Assembly: GCF_000835495.1 (NCBI RefSeq)
Contig: NW_015622546.1
Location: 1,242,883-1,306,882 of the forward strand
DNA from: Cladophialophora immunda
Lineage: Eukaryota; Ascomycota; Eurotiomycetes; Chaetothyriales; Herpotrichiellaceae
Reading direction: 5' to 3'
Length of the DNA stretch: 64,000 nucleotides
Part shown: piece by piece, positions 8,604 through 64,000 of the stretch
Layout: every line of letters begins with the position of its first letter
Position numbering within the stretch: position 1 is the first letter of the stretch
Notes under the pieces: generated by a model
The model's input: the letters and a program-made list of their open reading frames with translations, nothing else
Databases searched by the model: none
Told to the model about the DNA's origin: nothing
Made by a program: the position numbers and the translations under genes

Positions 8604-9804
8604 CACCGGGGCGGTTGTTGGACCTTGAATTGAACAAAGGGGCCTCGATCGTCACCGCAGCCCGGCATTATTGTACATTTTGTATCTCTTCTTACGGACG
8701 GACGTCATCATTGTCACCGATTGCATAGAAAGATGGCGTTTCGGGGGGTGCCTCGGCTTGTCCAACACTGAGCGTTAAGCCACTGCGCGTTGAGACAGGC
8801 GCTTGAATTAGGGTCAAGGGGGAACGGAGAGGGAGGATTAATTGTCCCGGTTGACGAAAGAGATACCCACCTCCAAGCCAGTGTATGATAGACAGGGCGC
8901 GCAAGAGAAGAATCTTTCTCACTTCGACCAAAAAGACCGTTGCGGTAGGACGATGAGGCTGGTGATGCCACTCTTAACTTAGGGTGAATCCGAGGTCCTC
9001 TGTAGCGTTCGATTCTTCGTGTCTTGTGCGTAGCGCAAGGTCCATCCATCCATGGGTGTCGCTCGCTGTATCATTAATAGTAAGAGGGTCAACCTCAACG
9101 CATCTAGCTACCTACTTACTTCCTTCGTTGCGTTAAGACCCTTGTCCGGGGGGGGGGGGGGACGGCAGCAACAAGACGAGGAGTCTGGTACGAGCGCTTG
9201 AATTGACTCCATACGATTTGTTCAATAATGTCGATAATGGCTCCAAACTGTATATTGATTGATTGTATCGGCGTAGGTACGTACCATACCTATGAATCTA
9301 ATTGCCTAGGTAGCTACGTATCGACCGTCCAACCCGACTAATTCTATCCATGGCTTTTTCGGGATTGTTCTCGTGCATTGACTAACCCCTACTGGAAAGC
9401 CTGCGCTCTGCAAGGCCATTGATTCTTCTCGAAGACCTATCTCAAGTGAATGAGGCTCGTGCATCCTGCCCGGGTCGGTAAGGGGACCTAGCGTCGCGTC
9501 GACGACGGAGAGTTCGGTTCGCGAAGTCTTGTACATCTGAGCTGTAGCTCCAAACCCGATGTCTTGTCGCCCTTGCTGAGAACTTCGATGGCAAGGGTCA
9601 AGAGACCTGTTTCGTGCGGAAGTCAAGGCGTGGGCTTTGTTGTCAGGGAACTCTGGTGATGGGAGATTGAGTCAGAGACATTTCTCACTTCCAGGTGAGG
9701 CGTTGGACTGACTACCTGGCTCACTATGTATCGTGACAGGGCGGAGTGGGACAGACTTACGGGCAACATCCCTGAGGCGGCGATGTGAACTTCGCTTGCA
9801 CATC
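8604..9804. other. Intergenic between two convergent genes
   Basis: 1.2 kb separate the carrier stop and the PKS stop. I see no gene. A run of 14 G lies at 9148-9161. Confidence 0.5.
9148..9161. repeat. G14 homopolymer
   Basis: Fourteen consecutive G. This is a candidate for polymerase slippage or a guanine quadruplex in the convergent 3' region. Confidence 0.9.
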
Positions 9805-12800
9805 CTAGCGGACGCTGAACTTGGCCAGCGCCTGTTCTATGGCTCTCCCAAGGCCATCGACCTATCGGACATTGTAAGAACCGGTAACCAAAGAGCTCAA
9901 ACTGAAAAGAGAGAAGGGGGGGAGCAATGAGCCAGTCACTTACATAGGGCTTCTGGACAAGCGAGAAATGGTCCCCGTCGACCACGAGCGTCTCGACGGC
10001 TCCAACCAGGCGGTCCCATCCGTTGGCGCCGAAGTCGTGCCTCCTGGAGCAGAACCAGGCCCGGAAGTCGACGTCGTGGTCATACATGATGTTCTTGCCG
10101 GCCGGGTCGACGAGGTTCTGGAGCTCGGCGGCGTCGCGGCCCTGCGCGTCGGCCGTCTCGCAAAGACCCCGTCGCGCCCAGACGACCAAGGTGCCTTTGG
10201 CGGGCTGCTGGCCCCGTCGCATCGGGAGCGGGTCGTACCTCGTCACGCACAGGCTGGTCGCCAGTACGTGCTCCAGCGTCTTCTCGCCCAGCGGGCCCAG
10301 GTCTCCCGAATGCGCACCACCGCCACCACCACGCAATCGTGCGAACATCCCGATCGCCTCACGCGTCGGCATGCCGACTTGCGGATCATGCGGCGCACCC
10401 CGGGGCACCTTCATGTCGATGAGCAACAGGCCCAGGACCTGCTCGCCCCGGGCCAGCATCTGGCGCGCCACCTCGTAGGCAAAGGCGGCGCCGGCGGACA
10501 AGCCACCCAGGCGGTAAGGGCCGGCACGCTGCACCGCCTTGATGGCGCGCTCGTACAGCGGGGCCAGGGCTTCGACCGAGCAGGTCAAGGCCGCGGGATC
10601 CTCGAGGAAGGGGGACTCCAGCGCGTAGAGGGCGGTGCTGGACGGCAGGGGCGGCAGGTCTGCGAAGGCGACGGCCGACCCGATGCCGTCGCAGATGAGG
10701 AAGAGCGGCGGCTCGGTGGCGTCGGCCTCGCCCCCCTGGATGAGCACTGCGGTGCTGGAGTAAGTGGTTGGGCGCGCGTCAGAGAGGAAGGCGGGTTCAT
10801 CGACGTCGGTCGGCGGCGTGGTCGACCACACAGGGTCAAGATCGTTGTCCGAGCGTTCAGAAGCCGAGTTTTCGCTGTTTGACGTCGGCGCATTCGTTGC
10901 TGTCTTCGGGGATTCTCCCCCGCTCGACCTCTTGGATCCAAATCTGGTCCTCAGCGCTCCGACGGTCGCTGTCTCGAGGAACAGCGACAACGGCAGGACG
11001 ACGCCCGTGCGACGCTTGATCGCGTCGACGACGACCATGCTCATCAGCGAGTCGACGCCCATATCTGCGAACTCGGTATCGTCGTGCACCTCGCTTGCGT
11101 CAAACCCCGTCTCGGCAATGACCATCTCCAGGAAAATCTCTGCAATCTCGCCATCGTCGACCTTTGCAGCCCTTGTCCCGGAGACGGCGCGAGGCGGAGT
11201 GGGTTTCTGGTTGACGGGGTCAAGCACAGGCTTGCCGCTCGGGAGTTCTCGGTGCAGCGTCGTCGTCACTGGGGATTGTTGTTGTGTCGTAGACGTTCGC
11301 CTGACAGATGTGATGTCTGGTTCAGAGACCCCAAGAAGCGTATTGAGGACGCTTTTCTTCATCTGCTGGAACTTGACACCTTCGCAGCAGCCAATCACTC
11401 GAGCTCCGTCCAGCATGTACACGTCGCCGATGGAAGCGCCCTTCTTGCCCGCTGAGCGCATATGTACGTAGCTGTGGTACGTTGTCCCCTCGGCGAGTTC
11501 CTCCACGAGCGTCATACGGTCAAGCCCGCCGGAGATGTATGCCACATCCTCCGGCGTCTTGCTGCTGCCGTTCAAGATAAACCCCGCCAGGTGCACCATG
11601 GAGTCAGTCCAGTACGGGTTGGCCGTCCACGTACCTCGGCCGACTCTGGGCCTGAGCTTGACCACGGCTACGGCGTCTTGTTTGTCTTCGTCCATGTAGA
11701 TCTCGTGCAGCCCTTGGTAGGCTTCGTCGTATCTGACCACCGAGTTGAACAGCTTGTAGATATACGGCCTCTTGAGCCGGCTGACGTGTTCCTCGCTGTC
11801 CCGGCTCTTGAGGCTCTCGATCCTAGACCGGATGAGATGGGCGCTGCGTTCCCAGTCGGATCGAATCTGGCACACGTCGCTGAAATCGACGTGGCATCGG
11901 CCGCGGCCGACGAAGTCTTTGCCGCCACGTTTCGAGCTCGAGGAGAAAGAGAGATGCACCTTCCACATGTCCTCCGCCGCGGCCGAAGCGGTGACGCGGA
12001 GAGTTTGGGTTTCGTCAGAAGGCGACAGGACGAGAGCGTTGAAAATGTCCAGGTCGCAAAGGGATGCAGATGGAATGGGGTCGCGAGGATGAGCCAGGCT
12101 CCGGACATATTTGGCCGCGCCGAGTGCCATGTCCGCGAAAACGCTCGAGGGACAGAGTGCCACACCGCTGATGATGTGGCCGTTGATGGCGGCGAACAGA
12201 TCTTCCTGGGCGGCCTTGGACTCGAATACCACACGAATCTCCTGACCGCTGACCGTCTCCGAGGTGATTTTCTGCAGCGCCGACGTCAACAATTTCCCTG
12301 GTTGGGAGGCTCCATCCGTGGCGCTGATTGTGCCCCAGCTATTCGTGGTTTTGTAGGTCTCCCAGAAGTTCTTGGTGTCGAATGCATACGTCGGCATGTC
12401 CACCAGGCTGACCGAGTCGAGATACTCTTTGTGGAATTCGGCCCACTGGATATGAACTCCGTTCTGATACAATTGCCCAAGGGAGCTCGACAGCGTCTTG
12501 AAGTCGGGCTCTCCGGCTTTGAGAGAAGCCAGGGTCCTTTCGGGAGGGACTTTAAGCGTTGATTTGACGAAGCCGGTGCAGAATGGAGTTGGCCCGAGTT
12601 CGAGCCAGAAGCTGCCCTCGTCCACCAACCCGCTTGCTCTCAGATTCTGAAGGGCTGAGACGAATTGGACTGGCTCGCGCATCTGCCTGGCCAGGTAGGA
12701 TGCTGTGAAGACCCCGCTGTCTCCGACCAGCTTCCCATTCAAGGTAGACATGACCGGTATCGCTGGCGCCCCGAAATTGACGCTGCTTGCTGCTGCTTCG

Positions 12801-15800
12801 AAGTCGTCCAGAATCGGGTCGAGCTGGGCGGAGTGGAAACCATACGGGACCCGGACAGATCTGGTATGAACCGCGTTCTGTTCAAGAATACCAGCGAGTT
12901 GCTCGATTTCTCGCTTCTTCCCACTGACGACCGTCGATGCTGGCGCGTTCAAGCAGGATATTTGGCACGAAATGTCTAGCCCCGAGCTTTGCAGGACTTG
13001 CTGAATCGTCTCCGCTGGAGCGGTGGTTGAGAGCATTCCGTACTCGGCCACGGTACACCTCGACTCCACGAGCGTCGCCCGCGTGCCGACGAGGAAAACT
13101 GCGTCGCTGGCCGACAGCACGCCGGCAACGCAAAGTGCAGCGTACTCGCCGAGGCTGTGGCCCATGACGGCCAAGGGCTTGAGGCCCCACGACATCCAAA
13201 GGTGTGCAAGAGCGATTTCAAGGGTCAATATGGCCAGCTGGACCTGCGTAGTCGATTTCTCCGCCATGGTTACGTCGGCGTCTCTGATGATATCGAGAAA
13301 ATAGGGGAAGCCGAGATGTGTGGCGATTTTCTGAAGCTCAATGGCCTCTCCCCGGAAGCGGCGTGACTGGTGGAAAATCTGGCATCCCATGCCGGCATAC
13401 TGAGAACCCTGCCCGGTAAATGTAAAGATGACAGTTGACTTCGTCTTCAGCGACGGCCGTTCAGTGTCGGGGGATTTGTGTAGGTTCGCCTCCAGCTGGG
13501 AGATGATATCGTCCACCGACGAGCCGGTGTACGCAACTCTCAGCGTCTCGTGCATTCGCCTGGCCGTGGTGCTGTATGCCAGGTCAGCCAGTCTTGTAGC
13601 CTTGTGCGCTTCCAGGTAGCTCAATAGCCGCCGTTGATTGCCTCTCAGCGACCGGGCAGTGCGGCCTGACAAGGCCACGACATGCCATTCTCGCGGGTCC
13701 GCATTCTTGCCGGCTTCTTTGCAGGGGCTGTTCTCGAGGAGCAAGCAAGTATTCCCGCCAGCCGCGTCGAAGTTGTTGACCAAGATCCTGTTTTGACGGC
13801 TTTTGTCGTTCGTGTTCGAGAGGGGAATCGGGTGCGACGGGATGCGCACGTTCAAAGCATTCAGATCAGGAAAGTTCGGGTTCAAAGGTCGCGGCATTCC
13901 GGCCTGCGGGGGAATCAGTCCTTCCTGCAGCATCATCGAAGCCTTGACCACCGCAGAAACACCGGCCACCGCCTCACCGTGGCCGATATTGGCTTTGACG
14001 GCTCCAAGGTGGAGAGGGTTGTTGGGAGAGCGGTCCCTCGCAAACACACTGAGGACTGAATCCATCTCCACCACGTCTCCTGCTTGCGTGGCTGTGCCGT
14101 GCATTTCCACATATCCAACGTCGGTAGGCTCGATGCCCGCTTGTTGTAACACCTGGCGATACAGTTGTTGCTGCGTTTCAGAATGCGGGTGCGTGATGGA
14201 GATGGCATTGGCAGAATGGTTCCGACCCCATCCACTAATCACCGACACGATGTTGTCATTCTCTGCAAGGGCATCCTCAAGCCGTTTAAGCACGACCATC
14301 CCCACACCCTCACCGCGACAGTACCCGTCCGCGTCTGCTCGGAAGGTCTTACACCCGCCGGTGGTCGACAGCATGCCTGCCTTGTCGAGGCTCGAATACT
14401 CGAGAGGAGTGTTAGCCAGCTGAGCGCCACCGGCCAACGCCATGTCGCATTCGCGCGCAATTAGCGCGGAGCATGCCAACGCAATGGCAGTCGAGCTCGA
14501 TGAGCATGCTGCGTCGACGCTGTAGGACGGCCCTTCGAAGCCAAAGTGGTAGTTCAGGCGGCCAGGTGCAAAGGCACGCAAGAGGCCAGGGGCGGTATAT
14601 ACGTCCGTCCCTTGCGCCGAGGAGAGAACATCTCGCCAGGGCTCAACACACTGGCCGGCGTAGACGGCAACTCGCTTCCGGTCGGTTGAGAGGCTGCTCG
14701 AGGGACTGTACCCCGAGTTCTCGAGCGCCTCATGAGCGGTCATGAGGAGGAGACGGTGAAGAGGGTCCATCTGGAAGGCTTCGCGGGGTGAAGCATTGAA
14801 AAGCCTCGCGTCAAATTCGCCAGGATTGTTGATAAAGCAGCCGTGCCGCACGGCCGTGCTGTTCGGCTTGTTGCCCGCGGAGTCATACCACTGTTCTACA
14901 TCAAAGCGGTCTGGAGGTATCTGTTTTGTCACGCAGCACAGTCAACAAAAGCTGCGATACAAGAGGTGATAGCGCCCATGCTTACTTCAGTGTGAGTCTC
15001 AACACCTTCCAGAATGACCCTCCAAAGCTCGTCAACGCTGTTGCTTTGTGGAAATCTCCCTGCCATCCCCACAATTGCGATCTTGTCCGAGCCACCGCGA
15101 ATGCCATGGGCCCCGTCCGCGTTCAACTGGGGAGACATGGTCAGGGTGTATCCCATGCCCATCTGTTGTAGGACCTTTTCGAGGAACTTGGTCTGCGCCA
15201 TCGGTCCGACACGGATGATATCGATGTCCCCGCCACCGTACATGCGGCTTATCGTCGCACATATGCAGTCGACGAGACGCAGTGGCCTGTCTAACGCGTC
15301 CTTTAAAACCTCCAGCAGAACGGCACCCAGAGTCCTACCCGTATAGGGCATACACGTGCTGGTGGAAATGATTGATATCCTCTCTGGCAGAGGCTTTTCC
15401 AGCGCCGGCGAGTTCCCCATGATCCATTCATAGTCCATCAAAGGCAGGTGGGGCGCGTGAGCGAGGACCGCGATGGGTATCCGGATCTGGGGAAGTCCAG
15501 TCACACGCGGGGACCAAGATAGGAATCTGCGCAAGGTTGATGGTGGACCAGAGACCGTCGTCCAGTTGGGACCCAATACACTGATATAGACACCGCGGTG
15601 TCTTGGTATAGCCTTGAATGGTTCGGCTTGTGTCAGGTTCTGCAAGCTTGGTGCAAAGGACGGGATATATCATTGCGCATACTTACAGAGACAGCATGAA
15701 ATTCGTCGATGACGGATTGCAAGCTCGTGCTGTGTATGTCCTTCAGCACATAGCTCCAAGCCCCTGTCGACACTTCGAGCCTTCGGGTCCTTTGCTCGGC

Positions 15801-53675: not shown

Positions 53676-54970
53676 TCGTCCAAGCGATTTTTACCGTATG
53701 CATCGGCACCGGCCGTACTTTCAAACAATAGAATTTAGGTCGTCATGGAGCATGGGTTTAACGCGGTCCACCTGTTTTCGAAAGACATTCATTCGGCTGC
53801 CATTATGTATTTTTCAAAGTATCTTCTGCTAGAATACGGCGGTCATCGTCCGCACTGGTGTAGACCATCCGTGTTCGGCACATTGCACTGAACAATACAT
53901 ATCTCGAGACAGAAAGTAGAGACGAAACGGTTTTATGTAAGGAATGAACATTTCACCTAGGAGGCTCAAGCCACATACAAACCGCAGAGAGCTTCGATAC
54001 TCGGGAGCCGGAGGACGACAGCAATGCCTACGGCTTTTTCCCTGTCCTTACCACGCTGGTATTATTGGACTAGCTTGGATTGAATCTGTGAAAGAGACGA
54101 AGGAAAACCGAACTACATGCTGTTCGCACAAAAGGTGTGCCACTGTGTGAAGACATGATATGCACCAAACCTGATTGGGTTGTAGTGGCAATGACCCATC
54201 AGAAGTCTGATGGAAATTGGTGGGTATGCTGGTTTGACTTCTTTGCGTACCGTGTGCACCATACGTCGTCTGGATCATATCGTCAGCAAAACCCATCAAA
54301 TTCTGGGCTCTACCTTACGGCCAATACCAACTCATCTCGTGACAACTACGTTGAGGGAAGCAAGCTGGAAGGAGAGTTAGCAAGTCAAGACGGACGGCTT
54401 ATTTAGATATGTTTCGAAATTGTTTGTTTACACCCTCAACGCCTATCAGTTTGATTTCCTGTGAGACTTGTCTTGCAATTGTTATAATCGTTCTATACTA
54501 GCTCGCGCACCTTGAAATGTCCGCCTATCAGAAAGAGAGACAAACACAAGATCAAAAGACCATTGGAAGAAGATTAGGTTTGGTATGCGCTCTGATAGCA
54601 GATCAGCCCAGGAAGCCATGATCCCACTCGACGTAATGTCGCCCGTCAAGTTCTGATAAGGCCACACTCTTAGCACCCAGAAGAGTGTTCTATCTCCGTC
54701 AACCACACTGCCGCTACCGTATATCCAAAACTACTCGGTTTCGGCGTCCACTTCTTTTCATTTTTGGCCCTTCATGTAACACAGTCTATGAATAAACTAT
54801 ACTCAATCCCAAAATGCTTTCCGGCGTCGTAGCTTGAGAGGCATAAAATAGGTAGGCGGGTAACAACTTTGTTCTTCTACACTGACTGTGGGAGGATCGA
54901 CGCGGTGCGGCGTATAAAGTCAGCCACCTCTAAGCACTAGGAGATTTCAGCACGTTAAATAACTATCTAC
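53676..54970. other. Region without supported gene
   Basis: 1.3 kb between the glycosyltransferase-like gene and the ankyrin remnant. Only short unconvincing frames are present. Confidence 0.45.
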
Positions 54971-55490
54971 CCAAGGGCGTCTATGATGTTTGGATCTACG
55001 CCTTTCTCCAGTAGAAATTGCATCAACTCCAGCTTCCCACGCCAAGCTGCTTCATGAAGAGGAGTGCCAAGTTCAATTGCTTGTTGTAGTCGATATGAAT
55101 CCACCCGATTCTGATATATCACGTCATTAGTAAACGAACCCTTATGGAGGAGATAATCTAGGACTTCGAGGCAATCTGGTTAATCACGACGGATAGCATA
55201 GCGAACGAGTTGTTCTGCAAAAATTGAGCCACTATGTCGAAGAGTGTCTTAATAACGTAGGACGGCGCAAATTGAACGGCATATGACAATGGAGTTAAGT
55301 CTGAGTTCAGAATTTGGATTTGCACAGTAAGAGAGGAACCAAGCGACGAGATCTGCGTTCTGAACCGTAAGCCTATTACTATAAGTAAGAAGTAGACTTT
55401 TAGATAATATTACGCAGCTTAGACATCCATCGCGTGTGGATACACTAGATATGTACATATTCCTATCGAACCGCCGCAAGGTACCTCAGT
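54971..55490 (-). pseudogene. Ankyrin-repeat protein remnant
   Basis: Read on the minus strand, the 3' end gives GTPLHEAAWRGKLELMQFLLEKGVDPN, a near-perfect ankyrin unit. It is preceded by SIFAEQLVRYAIRRD, an in-frame stop, and CLEVLDYLLHKGS. Further 5', NADLVAWFLSYCANPN runs in one frame and DLTPLSYAVQFAPSYVIKTLF in the next. Thus at least three or four repeats remain, with one stop and one or more frame changes, plus many stops above 55400. No start codon or upstream domain is recognisable. Ankyrin genes of this type multiply and decay readily in filamentous fungi. The left boundary is the TAG after DALG. Confidence 0.65.
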
Positions 55491-56133: not shown

Positions 56134-57269
56134 ATGTCTGCGTCACCTGTGAATGCGGATTCTTATCGCAAAACATCTGTCACCGATCTATTCTCCCTGA
56201 AAGGCAGAACAATTGTCATAACCGGTGAGTAGCCATCTCCACTCACCTTCAGTGAACACTTCCAACGCTCATACCTGCCGCAGGTGGTGCTCGAGGCCTC
56301 GGCCTGACCTTTGCCTGGGCTTGCGCAGAGGTCGGGGCTAACATCGCGGCCTTGGACTTACTGGAGAAGCCTCATGAAGATTTCGCTTTGTTACATGACG
56401 AGTTAGAGGTCAAAGCTAAATTTTACCGGTGCGTGAGCTGGTAAAACCCTCCATTGAAGGTTTGCTGCAATGCTCATGCCCAAGTCGATCACTAGAACAG
56501 ACGTCACGAACCTTGAACTGCTCACGCAGACGTTTGCGGAGGTGGTGAAAGATTTCGGCCGCATCGACCATTGGTAGGAGAGCACGTCTTTGGACATTCT
56601 AGATTCAGTCTTAACGCGACAGGTCAGTGTCACGGCCGCAGGAATCGCGAAGGATAAGGCTTTCCTCGAGCAAACCCAAGACGATCTGTCGTCGATCCTC
56701 ACAGTCAATGTAAGAGTCCCTAGATGACAGACCCAACAAAGCTCACCTTCCCGACCCTAGGTTCTGGGAACATGTTACACCGCGCAACTAGCTGCCAAGC
56801 AAATGATTGCACAAGGCGACGGCGGAAGCATCCTCCTTGTCTCTTCCATCGCAGCTCATTGCTCGGTGCCCGGGAGATCAGTGTCTGGTTACTGTGCGTC
56901 CAAAGGCGCCGTGTTATCTTTGTGCCGCGCAATCGCAGACGAGCTGGTGCCTTACAAAATCAGAGTCAACACCATAAGCCCTGGGTATGATGAATCCTCT
57001 CTTCTTCGAGCCCTCCTTCAACTTCGAGGTCAGATGTTGCAGTGTTCCCCGCTGACACATGGTATGTCAGGTTCATGTTGACCGACATGGCAATTCGAGA
57101 CATTGACAAGCGCCCCAATATACTGGAGGAGCTCTGTGCCAATGTGCCTATGAAACGCATGGGAGACCGTCGAGATCTCAAAGGTGCTGTAGTGTTGCTC
57201 TTATCAAACGCGTCGGCATATACCACCGGATCTGACCTCATCGTTGACGGAGGCGTAGTCTCTCATTAG
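56134..57269 (+). CDS. Short-chain dehydrogenase/reductase (classical SDR)
   Basis: Six exons (56134-56224, 56284-56428, 56496-56573, 56628-56709, 56761-56984, 57071-57269) join in frame to 272 aa, the standard classical-SDR size. The cofactor motif is created across the first splice (VITGGARGLGL). An acidic residue ends the second strand (ALDLLEK), hinting at NAD(H) preference. The catalytic Ser lies near 162 (LLVSSIAA), with Tyr near 176 and Lys near 180 in YCASK, followed by RVNTISPG. The C-terminus LLLSNASAYTTGSDLIVDGG is typical. It should interconvert an alcohol and a ketone. It opens the group of catabolic-looking genes that runs to the right edge. No targeting signal is seen (ends VVSH). 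Confidence 0.9.
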
Positions 57270-57465
57270 TAGACCGCGATTGAGGAGCTTGGACCCCAAT
57301 ACAATCCAATTCTATGCTTCATTTCAACATCCCACAAATATGGCACAGGAAAGATAGAAGGAATTCGCCTCAAGATTTCACACGTTCAACTTCTTGGTAT
57401 ATTGGAGTAGTATAATAGACAAAGCTGTAGGGCTACCAAAATGTCCATGGGCATGTATTCCATAT

Positions 57466-58758
57466 CTAAAGTTTCGGAGACCCTCTGCCGCTGAGAATCT
57501 CAATAACCAGTTTTCCAAAGTTCTTCCTTTCCTTCATCAACGTGAAGGCGTCCTCAACGTTCTCGAATGCGTGGACTGAATCTACAACAGGCTTGATCCT
57601 CTTTTCTGAGACATACTCCACCATTTTCCGGAATTCCTCTCTGGAGCCCATGGTTGAACCTCTCAGCTGTTTGGGGCCATCTCGTGTCAGCCCAACTAGA
57701 AATCTATAGCGCAGATTCAGGAAAGAGAGAAAAGGAAATGGAAAGTAGGAGATGAAAACGAACCTCGATGTTCCTCATTACGGCGGACATGCTAAAAGTC
57801 ACCTTGGGACCAAGGGTCATACCGTAGGAGGAAATGATGCCCCCGGCTTTCAGCAGGTGTAGGGACCTCGACACAATGTCGCCGCCGGCTCCATCGATTA
57901 TTGCGTCCAGGTACGGTCTCTCCTGTGGAAGAAGGTCCTTCAGCTGCTCACTCCACTTAGAATCTTTGTAGTTCACTCCTGCCGTGGCACCTAGAGCCTT
58001 CGCTTTGGACAATTTGTCCTCGGAGCCAGACGAAACATAGACTACCGCGCCGCGAGCAAGTGCAAACTGAAGGCAGAATAGGGCGACGCCTCCACCAATG
58101 CCCGTGATAAAGACATTCTGTCCTGGCTTGACCTCGGCCTTGGCAAACGTTGCTCTCCATGCGGTGAGTGCTGCGAGTGGAATGGCCGCCGCTTCCCGAT
58201 CAGAGAGATGTGCCGGGCACAGCTCGATCTCTGCGGCGGGCACGGCAATGTATTCCTGACAACTGCCGTTCTTCAAGTTCACCGTCCCTCCGAGAATAGA
58301 AAAAGCAGACTCGGGACCCGCAGGATCACATTTCCAGCTAGAGGCATGGGTGTTATTAGCTTGCCTTGAAGAAATTCTTCTTGACAGGGGGCCGTAACCA
58401 CCTACCCTCTGGCCGGCGCCAGAAGAACCCTTTTCCCCAACCATTGTTTTTCGATTTCTTCAGCTGCGGCAGATACAACGACCCCTACTGCGTCTGCCAT
58501 GATGGGTACCCCGGGAGTGGCCCCCCGGTACAGTCGTTGACGGGCAAACAAATCTCGATGGTTCAAGGACGCACACGAAATTCGCACCACCACTTCACCT
58601 GGAAGCGGTTTTGGAAAAGGCACGTCGACGGTTTCGAGACTAGAACATCGTCAGCGCCTTGCCGCGTAAGAGAGCCAGTATTTTGGGGAACAAACTCACG
58701 GCCAGTAGGCTGCTCCTGGACTTCCGCCAGCCTCTACCATCACGATCGCTTTTGGCAT
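57466..58758 (-). CDS. Medium-chain dehydrogenase/reductase (quinone-oxidoreductase-like)
   Basis: Four exons (58700-58758, 58406-58639, 57764-58337, 57466-57666) join in frame to 355 aa. The GroES-like N-domain has VRISCASLNHRDLFARQ and PIMADAVGVV. The usual zinc-ligand GHE is replaced by MADA, as in the zinc-free quinone-reductase-like branch. The Rossmann domain shows the nucleotide-binding GIGGGVALFCLQFALARGA and YVSSGSEDKLSKAKALGA, the latter without a clear NADPH-type basic patch. The C-terminus (AFTLMKERKNFGKLVIEI) is family-typical. Reduction of an enone or quinone, or alcohol oxidation, are the options. It is convergent with the SDR (197 bp) and 276 bp from the thiolase stop, so the genes are packed together. 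Confidence 0.88.
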
Positions 58759-59034
58759 TGTTGCGACACGTTAGTGGTTATGATACTGGCCCCTTCGAGA
58801 GATTAGTTTCTCTGCGTTGAAAAGGAACATACTGCGGTGTGAAGTATATCATTGCATTCCAGCCATGATCTTGTTCAACCAATATAATCGGTATGGTCCT
58901 TCCACGATTCGGCTTATGAGCCGAGGCCATTCTCCCGAGGAATCTGATGGTTTTGCAGGATACGAAGCTGTGTCTATAATTTATCTTTTTTCTAATTTTC
59001 TTCTTCTTTTGGTTTGCGGAGGGCAAGAACCTCC

Positions 59035-60522
59035 CTACAGCAACGCCGAGATTTTCCGACCTTCTACATCCATCCAGGTGCTATGATTGCGATCACTTCT
59101 TACTTTCACAATATCCGCACCGGTGACAGGCCTTGCTTCTACAGCGGGATTATACCCCATTCGTGAAACGGTAGACACATCCGTAATGGGCGTGTTCGAC
59201 TGTCCATCTGCGCGCTTATAGACCGTGACAACAGCTGCGCCACCGAGTCCAAGGTTATGTTGCAAGGCAACAGAGGCCCCCGGGACAAGTCTGTTCGTTG
59301 CCCAACCACGCAGCTGCCAGCACAACTCTGCGCATTGGGCTAACCCTGTGGCTCCGAGTGGATGACCTTTTGAAATGAGACCGCCCGAAGGGTTGACCAC
59401 CACCCTGCCACCGAAGGTGATGTTGCCCTCCCGAACGAATTGATGAGCCTTTCCTGACTCACACAAGCCCAGGCCGTCAATGGTGATCATTTCATTTGCC
59501 GAGAAGCAATCGTGAAGCTCGCACACTTTGACCATCTTTGGAGTAATACCAGCTTGGGCCATAGCTTCCTTTGAAGCTCGCTTCGTCATCTCAAAGCCCA
59601 CCAGATCTATGGCAGAAGTCGAGTATAGGCGAGGAGAGTCAGTGGCCATTGCACAGCCCGCGATTGCGATCGCCTGAGGCTTGAGCTCAGGGTGGGCCTC
59701 AAGAAACTTTTGCGAGACGACGACGGCCGCAGCTCCGCCATCTGAAGTAGGACAGCTGTGAAAGGACAAAGGGTCGCGTCAGCCAAATGATCTCTGTCTA
59801 AGCTCGCTGAAATATACACACCATTGCAACTTGGTTAATGGGTAATGGATCATCGGGCTCTTCATTATTTCCTCCAAGGTATAAACGTCCCGGAACTGGC
59901 TGTAAGGGTTTTTCGCCGAATGCTCGTGATTCACCCGAGCGATCTCTGCGAAATCCTCCAATGTTGCCCCAAATTTCTCCATGTATTCGCAGCCAGCATT
60001 GCCAAACGTCTGTGGTGCCCTCGGGACATTTCTGTCATATCCGTGGGTTGCTGCGATCATTTTCACGGTGCGTTCGTTGGGTGGCGCTCGATCACTGTAG
60101 GCCGACTTGAGCGAGCCAGGCGCCATCTTCTCGAAGCCTACAACAAGCACGCAATCGGCGAGCCCTCCGCTTATCAGCTGAAACGCGATGAAAAGCCCCG
60201 TGGATCCCGTAGCGCAGTTGTTGTTGACGTTGTAGATGGGTATCTGTGTCATTCCTTTCGGACACGATCAGCAAAAATGCGGGCCGGCAATCAAGGAGTA
60301 CCTAGTGCTCGTACCGAATTGATAGAAAACCCGCTGGCCGCAAGTCGAATCTCCATAACAGTAGCATGCAATCCCTTGGTCTACTTGATCATAGTTGATT
60401 CCAGCATCCAGCATGGCTTTAACCCCGGCTTCCAATCCAAGCTCTGGGTAATCCACGAGCCCCCTGGGCTTGATAAATTTAGTCAACCCGACCCCAATGA
60501 CATACGAAGGAATTTTGGCCAT
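59035..60522 (-). CDS. SCP2/SCPx-type thiolase
   Basis: Three exons (60315-60522, 59822-60254, 59035-59755) join in frame to 453 aa. The acyl-accepting Cys83 lies in NVNNNCATGSTGL. Later come CELHDCFSANEM and the basic His of GGLISKGHPLGATG, with the C-terminal NLGLGGAAVVTVYKR. This is the order of the sterol-carrier-protein-x thiolase subfamily, which cleaves (often branched or steroid side-chain) 3-oxoacyl-CoAs; no SCP2 lipid-binding domain is attached. The subfamily is usually peroxisomal. The last three residues here are ALL, which departs from the consensus (S/A/C)(K/R/H)L at the middle position. It is divergent from the monooxygenase gene across 479 bp, so shared control is plausible. 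Confidence 0.92.
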
Positions 60523-61001
60523 GTTGATCGGCCACAGAGCGGATTCAACACAAAAATCAAAATGTTTCTGATTTGAGCATTGGTGTTCGAATGTGTAAGT
60601 GACGACTTTAAGCTCTTGGAACCATACACCCCCCTTGTGCCATTCTCGAAACGACTAATTCTAAACGGAACAACTCTTCAGATACACGATGTACATTGTA
60701 GAACGCCAATCCTAGACCTAGGGGCTGTCAGCCTCGCAGAGTCACCAGAGGCGCTTGACGGACCGAATCCCTCGGACCCTCCTCCCGGAATCAACATGGG
60801 AAAGGTCCCGAGGCTTTTGATTCTCCACTTTTCTTGCCCAGAGAGCGGCAAAGAGATCTATCCGTTTCAGAGTATATTTGTGCCTTAGCGCAAATATCTG
60901 ATGAGGGTCTGAAGTATTGATATTGCTCAACATAATTAGGGGGTTGACAGCTAGCAAAACCTTTCACAGCGGACAGCAGACTGGCGCATCCACAGTGAAA
61001 T
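60523..61001. promoter_or_regulatory. Divergent promoter region, thiolase / BVMO
   Basis: 479 bp between two outward-facing starts of functionally compatible genes. No operator motif could be assigned by eye. Confidence 0.5.
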
Positions 61002-63198
61002 ATGGCTGCCCCTGACGGTAAACAACAGTCAACTAATGGCCAGGTCGGCTTGGGTCAAAGCGTCAGGATTGGAAGCAACACACCTGGAGCTCACCCGTCC
61101 TCTGAGCATCGCCCTGTATATCACAAAGAATGGGGCACGCCGTCCGCGAGAGGGTATTCTATTTCAGACCACATGATCAATGAACCTCCCCCGGACAAAC
61201 CGTTCAGAGTCATCATGGTAGGAGCCGGGGCGGCTGGGATTGACTTCCTCCACCATGCACCCTCCGCCCTCAAAGATCTCAACGTTGACATCGTATGCTA
61301 CGAGAAGAACGAGGAGGTTGGCGGCACTTGGTGGGAGAACCGATACCCGGGCTGTGCTTGTGGTAAGAATCGATACTGGCAACACATTCAGCGAACAATG
61401 CGGTGCTGACGGTGTGAAAAGACATACCCAGTGCGAGCTACCAGTTCGCCTGGAAGCCCAACCCAGAGTGGAAGAAGTACTATAGTTCCGCCAAACAGAT
61501 ATGGCAGTATTTGAAGGGCATTGTGGACGAAGAAGGCATGATGAGATACATCAAACCTGGAGTTGCCGTGGTCCGCGCCGTCTGGCAAGACGACAAGTCC
61601 AAGTGGCTCGTGGGACTTTCTCGCTCTGAGGATGGCGAGGGGTCCGAGTGGACGGAAGAATGCGACCTACTGGTTAGCGGTACGGGATTTCTAAAGTCTG
61701 TATATCTCCGCTGTTTTCTCTCGTTTGGACCAAAGAAGTTGTCGTTTTACCCTGTTGCTGATTCCGTTCTCTTAAAGTGCTTGGAAGTGGCCTACAATTC
61801 CTGGCCTTGAAACGTTTAGAGGGAAGCTTTTCCACAGTGCAAAGTATGAAGACGGCTTTGACCTCAAGGGGAAGCGTGTGGCCGTGGTCGGCTCCGGCAG
61901 TTCGGGCGTCCAAATCGTCGCGTCTATCTATAACGACGTGTCGAAGCTTTATACCTGGGTACGGACTCCGACCTGGATTACGGCAGGGTTCGCACAGAAG
62001 TATGCTGGCGAGCACGGGGCGAATTTCGATTGTGAGTGATAGGGCTTTGCTATGCTACGCTATTCGGCTGAAATGCCAGCCCCTCCACTCTCTTAAAAAG
62101 TCCTTTCATACTAACAAGACGGTCCCAGACTCGGAGGAACAGAAGGAGGATTGGCGGCAGAATCCCGAGAAATACAGAACATACAGAAAACTGATCGAGC
62201 TGGAGTTGAATCAGAGGTTCAAGTTCGTCCTTAGAAACACTCACGAATCGGACGAAGCCAACGCTGTAAGAGAGAACTCTTGAGTTACATTGCCGTCGTT
62301 CCATATCACTAACTTTCGGGGCTTGAAGTTTGCCTATAAAGAAATGTCCTCAAAGCTCGGCCACAATCCCCGTCTTGTAGACCGGATGATTCCCAAGGAC
62401 TTCAATGTTGGTTGCCGCCGGCCGACACCCGGAAATGGCTACCTCGAGGCCCTTGTGGCCGAGAAGACAACATGCTACACTGACAGCATTGCTGCCATCA
62501 CTCCCAAGGGCTTCATTACCGCTGATGGGGAGGAGGTCGAGGTCGATGTAATCATCTGCGCCACAGGATTCGACACCTCTTTCCGGCCCCGGTTCCCGAT
62601 CATCGGGATGGAAGGGACCAACCTGTCTGAGCGATGGAAAGAGGTGCCAGCCAGCTACATTTCCGTGGCGGCACCCCAAATCCCCAACTACTTCATGTAC
62701 ACGGGACCATTTGGCCCCGTTGCGCAAGGCTCCGTGCTTCCCCTCCTCACACTGTGTTCCCAGTACGTCATTCAAGTGATACGGAAGATGAGGAAAGAGC
62801 ACATTCGCCGCCTCTACCCCAAGGACAGCGCGATCGAGGACTTCATGGAGCACACCGCAACGTACATGCCACGGACGTGCTGGTCGGACCCGTGCACCAG
62901 CTGGTTCAAGCAGGGTACAAAGGACGGGCCGATCGTCATGTGGCCTGGCAGCAGATTGGCCTTCTTCGACCTGATGGAGACGCCAAACTTCGAGGACTAC
63001 GAGATCGAGTACTGGAGCCGGAATCGGTGGGGATGGCTGGGCAACGGGTTCAGCACGATTGAATTCAACGGGAAGAGCGACATCACGTACTACCTGGATT
63101 CACAAGCAGGGAGGGAAGTCGGAGGCCAGAAAAAGCCTGCGGCGACGAACGGCCACACGAATGGAATTAAGGCTGATGAACCATGCAGCGGTCTTTGA
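61002..63198 (+). CDS. Baeyer-Villiger-type FAD monooxygenase
   Basis: Five exons (61002-61362, 61422-61695, 61778-62031, 62129-62265, 62329-63198) join in frame to 631 aa. The FAD Rossmann motif is VGAGAAG at 74-79. GGTWWENRYPGCACDIPS and the NADPH Rossmann VVGSGSSGVQI follow. Between the two folds sits FRGKLFHSAKYED, which matches the FxGxxxHxxx(W/Y) fingerprint of Baeyer-Villiger monooxygenases. DVIICATGFDTSF is the ATG-containing motif of the family. The enzyme should insert one oxygen beside a ketone to give an ester or lactone, using NADPH and O2. It appears undamaged and is the working counterpart of the pseudogene at 30.5-31.9 kb. The substrate is unknown. Confidence 0.92.
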
Positions 63199-63891
63199 TA
63201 TGGAAGCAACGATGATGTTTAAAATGTTTAGGAGATTGAGGGGTTTGATCCCAAATATGCCACGAGCGCTTTTTTGTCAAGCTCAACTCCAAGACTGGAA
63301 AAGAGGCGTGAACCTATTTGCCCTGTTCCCAGAAATGAACTCTAGCGATGCCTTCATGTACTCAACTTTACTCCATCTCCTCCGCAGCTTTTCTTCGTCG
63401 TGGTAAAAGCTACGGTGGGGACTGCAATGATATATAGACTTTGTCCACCTTTCTCCCTCGCACCGCACACTCCTGCCCAGGCATGAACCTAAATGGCAGC
63501 ATAGATGGTGTAAAAACAGATGAAGGATGTCTAGGCCTGACAGGATGCAGGGTGGAAAAGAGAGCACATCCGAAAGGGCATACATGCCTCTGCAGCAGAT
63601 GCGCGGATTGATTGCAGGTCTTCTCGGTAAGAGATCCGCGGACCGAAAGTCCAGAATCCCACACACACAGAGCAAATCACAGAACCGACGCATGTGGACC
63701 TCGGGACTCTCTTCGCGTACCTGACACTAACTGCATCTTCTTTCTTTTCTACAATGGCCTTGTACCATAATCACTGTCTATCGTGACAAGATACGCCAAA
63801 GCACGCTGGTGACTGACTGATTGATTGACTAAAGCGAGCTGAACAGAAGAATTCGAGCCAGTTCCGGTCCAGATCGCACTTGCTCAGCACA
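63199..63891. other. Intergenic, BVMO to MaoC-like gene
   Basis: About 690 bp with the promoter of the last gene. No other feature is recognised. Confidence 0.4.
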
Positions 63892-64000
63892 ATGTCCGCG
63901 TCTGTGCAAGACTTTGAGTACCCCGACAGACCATGCGCTTGGAACGAGCGAGACCTCATTCTCTTCGCGGCAAGCATCGGCTGCAAGGATGACGAATTGA
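63892..64000 (+). CDS. MaoC-like hydratase/dehydratase, 5' end (cut by window edge)
   Basis: An ATG at 63892 opens a frame of 36 codons that reaches the right edge. The translation contains CAWNERDLILFAASIGCKDDEL. This resembles the start of the MaoC-like hot-dog hydratases (peroxisomal 2-enoyl-CoA hydratase 2 type), in which WNERDVILYALGIGA.. DEL is the usual opening. Such enzymes hydrate trans-2-enoyl-CoA to (3R)-hydroxyacyl-CoA. The position next to a thiolase, an SDR and a monooxygenase supports the call, but only this first piece is visible. Confidence 0.7.
   Translation, partial: MSASVQDFEYPDRPCAWNERDLILFAASIGCKDDEL

What the first reader, a model, noticed from the sequence alone, without database searches (positions are those of the whole stretch)
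56134..64000. Compact catabolic gene set: SDR, MDR, SCPx-type thiolase, BVMO, MaoC-like hydratase
Five adjacent genes encode steps that fit one route: alcohol/ketone interconversion (SDR), reduction of an enone or quinone (zinc-free MDR), oxygen insertion next to a ketone (BVMO), enoyl-CoA hydration (MaoC) and retro-Claisen cleavage of a 3-oxoacyl-CoA by a thiolase subfamily known for branched or steroid side-chain substrates. Spacing is tight (197-690 bp) and thiolase/BVMO share a divergent promoter. The domains are seen in the sequence; the pathway is inference. Degradation of a cyclic terpenoid, steroid or alicyclic compound, probably partly in peroxisomes, would fit. I know of no described fungal cluster with exactly this order, but could not search.
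Basis: partly seen in the sequence, partly recalled or inferred. Interest (0 to 1): 0.75.

Follow-up and report, generated by a model that had tools for sequence, protein, structure and literature searches.

The report
Putative fungal ring-degradation gene cluster
A black-yeast chromosome carries about eleven neighbouring genes for enzymes, a regulator and a transporter that look like one pathway for oxidising a ring-shaped compound and cutting the resulting acid into small pieces; the enzymes are ordinary, their combination is unusual, and the compound is unknown.

Summary
The five genes are real and intact by conserved motifs: SDR, zinc-free MDR, SCPx-type thiolase, BVMO-type flavin monooxygenase and unfused hydratase 2 (MaoC), the last cut by the window's end. 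The genome is Cladophialophora immunda or a very near relative.

For a functional unit: the monooxygenase-hydratase pair is adjacent in C. bantiana and Pseudogymnoascus; a second locus here has monooxygenase-hydratase-NMO within 6.5 kb; thiolase and MaoC genes lie within 15 kb at 3 further loci (0.06 expected). Against: five other pair types show no clear excess, and the species closest in thiolase (C. psammophila, Exophiala mesophila) list no close monooxygenase or hydratase, so the whole set was seen only here.

Most likely it oxidises an alicyclic or terpenoid compound to a ketone, opens the ring and degrades the acid by CoA-dependent β-oxidation. Substrate, co-expression, lactone opening and the acyl-CoA oxidation step are unshown; a steroid is not favoured. 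Peroxisomal location is partly supported. New variant of a known kind.

The parts
56134..57269 (+). SDR (short-chain dehydrogenase), 272 aa, 6 exons
   Evidence: model; adh_short on exon 5; best NCBIfam match gluconate 5-dehydrogenase, below its cut-off
57466..58758 (-). MDR, zinc-free type, enoyl-reductase-like, 355 aa, 4 exons, ends -PKL
   Evidence: model; ADH_zinc_N; best solved relative 'Trans-acting enoylreductase' 9mc1, E 1.7e-92
59035..60522 (-). SCPx-type thiolase without SCP2 domain, 453 aa, 3 exons
   Evidence: model; Thiolase_N/_C; the 89% identical C. psammophila protein passes PRK08256 (564 over 436 bits)
60523..61001 (.). 479-bp region between the divergent thiolase and monooxygenase genes
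61002..63198 (+). BVMO-type flavin monooxygenase, 631 aa, 5 exons
   Evidence: model; CLAIMM_03718 differs at 2 of 631 residues; best solved relatives cyclohexanone monooxygenases
63892..64000 (+). First 109 bases of the enoyl-CoA hydratase 2 gene (two hot-dog domains, unfused, 317 aa, 3 exons); the gene runs to 65187 in continued window numbering. Six further cluster genes lie beyond the window, at C6:1308344-1323443; see the full report
   Evidence: model; Pfam; right flank

Best explanation
A catabolic gene cluster of about 24 kb and 11 genes for a cyclic, probably terpenoid or other alicyclic, compound. Proposed order: the MFS protein imports it; the P450 with the FAD/NAD reductase hydroxylates it; the SDR oxidises the alcohol to a ketone; the MDR or the NMO-family flavoprotein saturates a conjugated double bond; the BVMO-type enzyme inserts oxygen beside the ketone; the lactone opens, spontaneously or by an enzyme outside the cluster; the acetoacetate-type ligase makes the CoA thioester; hydratase 2 adds water; a dehydrogenase (this SDR or the cell's MFE-2) oxidises; the SCPx-type thiolase cuts off acetyl- or propionyl-CoA, partly in the peroxisome. 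Shown: genes, families, motif intactness, co-location, recurrence of parts. Inferred: each reaction, the order, the substrate and co-regulation.
Against: Of six family pairs tested, only thiolase-MaoC is in clear excess; monooxygenase-thiolase, monooxygenase-MaoC, monooxygenase-ligase and thiolase-ligase occur once each (0.34, 0.45, 0.91 and 0.12 expected) and MaoC-ligase not at all; MaoC-NMO once against 0.12 (P 0.12). C. psammophila and E. mesophila have the closest thiolases (89%, 83%) but their listed monooxygenases are at most 59% and 51% identical and they are absent from the hydratase list. No lactone hydrolase was seen and no acyl-CoA dehydrogenase lies in the cluster (nearest C6:1247502, over 50 kb away); acyl-CoA oxidase was not searched. 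The thiolase and monooxygenase lack PTS1-type ends. The hydratase tree does not firmly join the Pseudogymnoascus protein to the window's. The toluene study's main text has no 'Baeyer' or 'steroid' and no tag beginning CLAIMM_036 or CLAIMM_037.
Confidence: 0.4

Rival explanations
1. Catabolism of an aryl ketone or aryl-alkanoic acid: the CoA enzymes shorten an aromatic side chain and the monooxygenase turns an aryl ketone into an ester.
For: C. immunda degrades toluene (PMC5595782, abstract). Hydroxycinnamates are degraded in A. niger by ligase, hydratase/dehydrogenase and thiolase, with ligase and thiolase genes adjacent (PMC8140964, passages). Sister cassettes here pair SCPx thiolase with AMP-binding ligases and MFE-2/MaoC.
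Against: The ligase is of the acetoacetate type and the hydratase is unfused; no aromatic ring-cleavage gene was recognised among the frames read to the right.
Confidence: 0.2
2. Steroid or sterol side-chain and ring catabolism.
For: SCPx-type thiolase; steroid monooxygenase is among the solved relatives of the monooxygenase.
Against: Cyclohexanone monooxygenases and OTEMO score higher; SCPx thiolases are at nine loci with varied neighbours; no ketosteroid-type gene was recognised among the frames read, though none was searched for by model.
Confidence: 0.12
3. Chance neighbours: several enzymes of large families with separate roles, the ligase and thiolase for instance salvaging acetoacetate.
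For: About 64 monooxygenase-like and 22 ligase-like loci in the genome; an FAA hydrolase-thiolase-ligase group at C2:5311583 fits acetoacetate salvage; the whole set was not seen in another species.
Against: Conserved monooxygenase-hydratase pair, second monooxygenase-hydratase-NMO locus, thiolase-MaoC excess.
Confidence: 0.18
4. Secondary-metabolite tailoring rather than catabolism.
For: The best solved relative of the MDR is called a trans-acting enoylreductase, a role that, as recalled, belongs to polyketide pathways; BVMOs and P450s are common tailoring enzymes (recalled).
Against: No polyketide, peptide or terpene synthase was recognised among the frames read from 56134 to the HET gene; the polyketide-synthase-like frames of the window are about 40 kb left (9623-15669).
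Confidence: 0.1

Closest known systems
Camphor (cam) pathway of Pseudomonas putida (PMC4097962, passages seen)
   Same: P450 hydroxylation, dehydrogenase to ketone, Baeyer-Villiger oxygen insertion, CoA activation, then oxidation to acyl-CoAs
   Different: Bacterial; ferredoxin-type P450 partners; two rounds of Baeyer-Villiger oxidation, one on a CoA ester; no homology of the whole set tested
Limonene use by Grosmannia clavigera (Wang et al. 2014, not held; seen through passages of PMC8120277)
   Same: A fungus; two BVMOs, listed as peroxisomal, implicated in terpenoid detoxification
   Different: Gene neighbourhood unknown to me; the BVMOs were not compared with this one
hcsA-katA-foxA hydroxycinnamate β-oxidation of Aspergillus niger (PMC8140964, passages seen)
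   Same: CoA ligase and thiolase genes adjacent, hydratase/dehydrogenase step, peroxisomal signals
   Different: No monooxygenase or P450 named with it in the passages seen; fused hydratase/dehydrogenase FoxA; ligase HcsA is FatB-like; whether KatA is of the SCPx type was not tested

Membership tests
Type I Baeyer-Villiger monooxygenase | Fingerprint FxGxxxHxxxW[P/D] (recalled) | tested here: not met
   FRGKLFHSAKYE: Y for W. Of 120 listed relatives 84 have Y, 21 W, 8 F, 1 L, 6 no match. So it is called BVMO-type by homology, not filed as a proven member
Type I Baeyer-Villiger monooxygenase | Second motif [AG]GxWxxxx[FY]P[GM]xxxD and two Rossmann motifs (recalled) | tested here: met
   GGTWWENRYPGCACD, GAGAAG, GSGSSG; second motif in 112 of 120 listed relatives
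Type I Baeyer-Villiger monooxygenase | Closest solved relatives are BVMOs | tested here: met
   Top hits cyclohexanone monooxygenases (best 183.9 bits), OTEMO 163.7, steroid monooxygenase 158.2; first entry named flavin-dependent or flavin-containing monooxygenase 67.4
SCPx/SCP2-type thiolase | Passes the curated lipid-transfer-protein/thiolase model | tested here: met
   On the 89% identical P0121: PRK08256 564.1 over 436 bits; nearest solved SCP2-thiolase type-1, E 1.1e-141
Acetoacetate-CoA ligase | TIGR01217 equivalog cut-off | tested here: met
   587.9 over 520.9; the subfamily model NF002937 falls just short, 631.3 under 639. Substrate not testable here
Enoyl-CoA hydratase 2 | N-terminal and MaoC hot-dog domains | tested here: met
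   PF22622 66.9 and PF01575 86.2 bits, both cut-offs 27
hcsA-katA-foxA type cluster | Fused hydratase/dehydrogenase (FoxA type) | tested here: not met
   Hydratase 2 is a separate 317-aa protein
Fungal catabolic gene cluster | Functionally linked genes co-located beyond chance | tested here: inconclusive
   Thiolase-MaoC excess and recurring monooxygenase-hydratase(-NMO), but other pairs not in excess
Fungal catabolic gene cluster | Co-expression on one substrate | not testable with these tools

The most novel reading that the evidence does not exclude
A modular fungal way to use rings as food: SCPx-thiolase cassettes that combine, from locus to locus, hydratase 2 or MFE-2, an acetoacetate-type or other CoA ligase, a BVMO-type monooxygenase and an NMO-family reductase, giving one fungus a family of ring-opening plus β-oxidation pathways, a fungal counterpart of bacterial camphor or cholesterol catabolism, with the window's cluster its fullest form. 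Its monooxygenase belongs to a group kept in Onygenales, Eurotiales and others for which I found no function.
Probability: 0.27. Interest if true: 0.65.

Novelty: new variant of a known kind. Interest (0 to 1): 0.4.

Why it matters
If the set works as one route, it is a testable gene list for fungal use of alicyclic or terpenoid carbon in a hydrocarbon-associated black yeast; the 2014 review PMC4097962 counts only three monoterpene pathways known in full at gene and enzyme level (passage). It would also give a setting for a flavin monooxygenase group found in many ascomycetes.

Tried and rejected
Steroid reading: not excluded, but nothing beyond the thiolase class favours it. Bacterial template: the 80 best of 94 bacterial loci with thiolases 51-61% identical to P0121 held related SDRs in 22, MFE-2/hydratase 2 in 8, an AMP-binding ligase in 3, MDR in 2, monooxygenase in 2, NMO in 1 and the acetoacetate-type ligase in none (stretches of 3.5-21 kb), so no bacterial counterpart of the cluster was seen; no test for horizontal transfer was made. 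Shared regulator site: CGG-N8-CCG occurs in 4 of 5 upstream regions tested, not in the thiolase/monooxygenase one; the spacing is not enriched in the segment (0.31 against 0.33 per kb elsewhere; 20 against 17 expected in the window). A narrower form, CGGYWNNNGANCCG, hits three upstream regions (55910, 58910, 63625) and once in 239,257 bases of other loci, but was drawn from those three sites, and 4 of 100 shuffles reach three; the second cassette has none. Left as a lead. Trees: the thiolase tree holds 27 of 120 listed homologues and 8 paralogues stitched from tblastn pieces that include intron residues; the monooxygenase tree is a quick one, with 67 of 120 listed proteins and 6 own paralogues. 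The thiolase loci C1:4706470, C1:7437235 and C2:2030886 were fetched and looked at only as frames and by an SDR search; no cassette was recognised. Placement tests put genes uniformly on eight contigs, with the length of C4 taken as the remainder of the genome, and ignore gene density. Literature: searches listed no paper that I recognised, from titles and opening abstract lines, as describing this cluster; only open-licence papers are held. Structure prediction was not used.

Full report
What is there. The five genes are real. Spliced by hand at GT-AG introns they give full-length proteins: SDR 56134-57269 (+), MDR 57466-58758 (-), thiolase 59035-60522 (-), flavin monooxygenase 61002-63198 (+), hydratase 63892-65187 (+; 109 bases in the window). 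The monooxygenase equals CLAIMM_03718 of Cladophialophora immunda except at 2 of 631 residues. The contig lengths differ (408,214 against 4,175,021), so this is another assembly of that species or a very near relative. The genome has 42.2 Mb in 39 contigs.

Extension. To the right follow, in window numbering continued past 64000 (add 1,242,882 for contig C6): a ligase 65462-68201 (-), a fungal transcription factor about 69143-71478 (+; half of a Zn2Cys6 motif seen at 69143), a P450 about 72047-73624 (-), an FAD/NAD reductase 74632-75819 (+), an NMO-family flavoprotein 76547-77578 (+) and an MFS transporter about 78749-80561 (+; one exon scanned, slightly under the Pfam cut-off), then a HET gene. 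The ligase has nine exons and 695 residues, passes the acetoacetate-CoA ligase equivalog and ends in -ARL. To the left, between 53732 and 56133, one search lists one frame of at least 100 codons (54092-54406); beyond lies a glycosyltransferase-like gene whose Pfam matches are below cut-off. The SDR is therefore taken as the left end. The whole is about 24 kb; the genes after the ligase are known at frame level only.

Enzyme types. The MDR's best solved relative by far is a 'Trans-acting enoylreductase' (9mc1, E 1.7e-92, next 2.6e-46), which favours reduction of an enone or enoyl group over a quinone. The monooxygenase is closest to cyclohexanone monooxygenases, then OTEMO and steroid monooxygenase, which does not choose a substrate; its fingerprint has Y for W, as in 84 of 120 listed relatives, so the BVMO name rests on homology. 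An 89% identical thiolase passes the SCPx-type model and is nearest to SCP2-thiolase type-1. The hydratase is an unfused hydratase 2. The NMO protein is about equally near to FabK enoyl reductases and a putative nitroalkane dioxygenase; the FabK equivalog is not reached (164.9 against 453.1).

More than chance? Evidence for. Outside the cluster, thiolase and MaoC genes lie within 15 kb at 3 loci, 0.06 expected, 0 of 5000 placements. C3:4546500-4552999 holds monooxygenase, hydratase and NMO homologues in one orientation; chance about 0.005, computed after seeing it. Evidence against. The other five pair types among monooxygenase, thiolase, MaoC and ligase show 1, 1, 1, 1 and 0 pairs against 0.34, 0.45, 0.91, 0.12 and 0.15. 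The closest thiolases are in C. psammophila (89%) and Exophiala mesophila (83%), but these species' listed monooxygenases reach only 59% and 51% and neither is in the hydratase list; conversely C. bantiana, with the closest monooxygenase and hydratase (81%, 78%), is not named in the thiolase list. The lists show the best 120 of a database clustered at 90%, so this is not proof of absence, but the whole set was seen together only here. The hydratase tree leaves the Pseudogymnoascus protein unresolved.

Sister cassettes. SCPx-type thiolases occur at nine loci. Five others have CoA-related neighbours: C1:1311650 and C2:2967089 with an AMP-binding ligase, a regulator and a MaoC hydratase; C6:3706880 with a carboxylesterase and an MFE-2 (SDR and hydratase parts); C2:5311583 with an FAA hydrolase and an acetoacetate-type ligase; C5:2787270 divergent to a monooxygenase, with an AMP-binding ligase, a regulator and esterases (the C1 regulator was recognised by eye with no Pfam match, and the C1 hydratase only). 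Three were not recognised as cassettes. FAA hydrolase with ligase and thiolase suggests acetoacetate salvage there (inference), which warns that the ligase here might do the same. The window's thiolase forms a 6-row clade (100/100) with C. psammophila, E. mesophila, E. viscosa, Malbranchea and one unnamed protein, apart from the C1:7437 copy that groups with the widespread form. The monooxygenase falls in a 55-row clade of a 73-row tree, with C. bantiana, Onygenales, Eurotiales and others, apart from the 6 own paralogues sampled.

How it most likely works. P450 hydroxylation, dehydrogenation to a ketone, enone reduction, Baeyer-Villiger oxygen insertion, opening, CoA activation, hydration, oxidation and thiolysis would use all enzymes. 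The camphor route has the same logic and a lactone that opens spontaneously (PMC4097962, passages), which would excuse the missing hydrolase. No acyl-CoA dehydrogenase is in the cluster (oxidases not searched); an already unsaturated intermediate would avoid that step (inference). Hydratase 2 makes a (3R)-hydroxyacyl-CoA (recalled), needing a matching dehydrogenase; the SDR could serve, but it is only 26-33% identical to SDR parts of the sister loci. Alicyclic or terpenoid is my first choice from the enzyme combination and from the Pfam families reported as over-represented in C. immunda (PMC5595782: outline and abstract, passages and section 13 seen). The substrate is inference.

Peroxisome. 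Ends: ligase -ARL, hydratase -LKL (-SRL and -TKL in the two relatives), MDR -PKL, thiolase -ALL, monooxygenase -SGL, SDR -VSH. Of 120 listed hydratases 73 end in -SKL; of 120 listed thiolases 104 end in -ARF or -SRF. Ligase and hydratase are likely peroxisomal, the rest open.

Novelty. Ten searches of open-licence papers (listed under Tried and rejected) showed none that I recognised as describing this cluster. The nearest fungal precedent, limonene use by Grosmannia clavigera, was seen only through passages of a review. I rate it a new variant of a known kind: ordinary enzymes in a combination I did not find described.

Noticed in passing
L054 (C3:4546500-4552999): Compact monooxygenase, hydratase 2 and NMO homologues in one orientation, a partial sister of the window's cluster.
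   Followed up: partly
L044-L045 (C5:2780000-2799899): A second divergent SCPx-thiolase/monooxygenase pair, with AMP-binding ligase, transcription factor, carboxylesterase and abhydrolase genes; esterases could open Baeyer-Villiger products.
   Followed up: partly
L046 (C2:5307000-5316999): FAA hydrolase, SCPx-type thiolase and acetoacetate-type ligase together, fitting salvage of acetoacetate.
   Followed up: partly
L050 (C5:3911000-3920999): Monooxygenase, SDR and acetoacetate-type ligase within about 6 kb.
   Followed up: no
whole genome G000: About 64 loci match the BVMO-type monooxygenase and about 22 the acetoacetate-CoA ligase type (fragments merged within 2.5 kb); large expansions.
   Followed up: no
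C7:1826626-1831913: Acyl-CoA dehydrogenase next to an acetoacetate-type ligase.
   Followed up: no
window 9623-15669: Large frames reading like a polyketide synthase with a C-terminal thioesterase (by eye); not scanned.
   Followed up: no
window 55910, 58910, 63625: CGGYWNNNGANCCG sites upstream of SDR, MDR and hydratase; a possible Zn2Cys6 site, motif drawn after the fact.
   Followed up: partly
window 54980-55160: Minus-strand stretch that reads like a decayed ankyrin repeat, left of the cluster (by eye).
   Followed up: no
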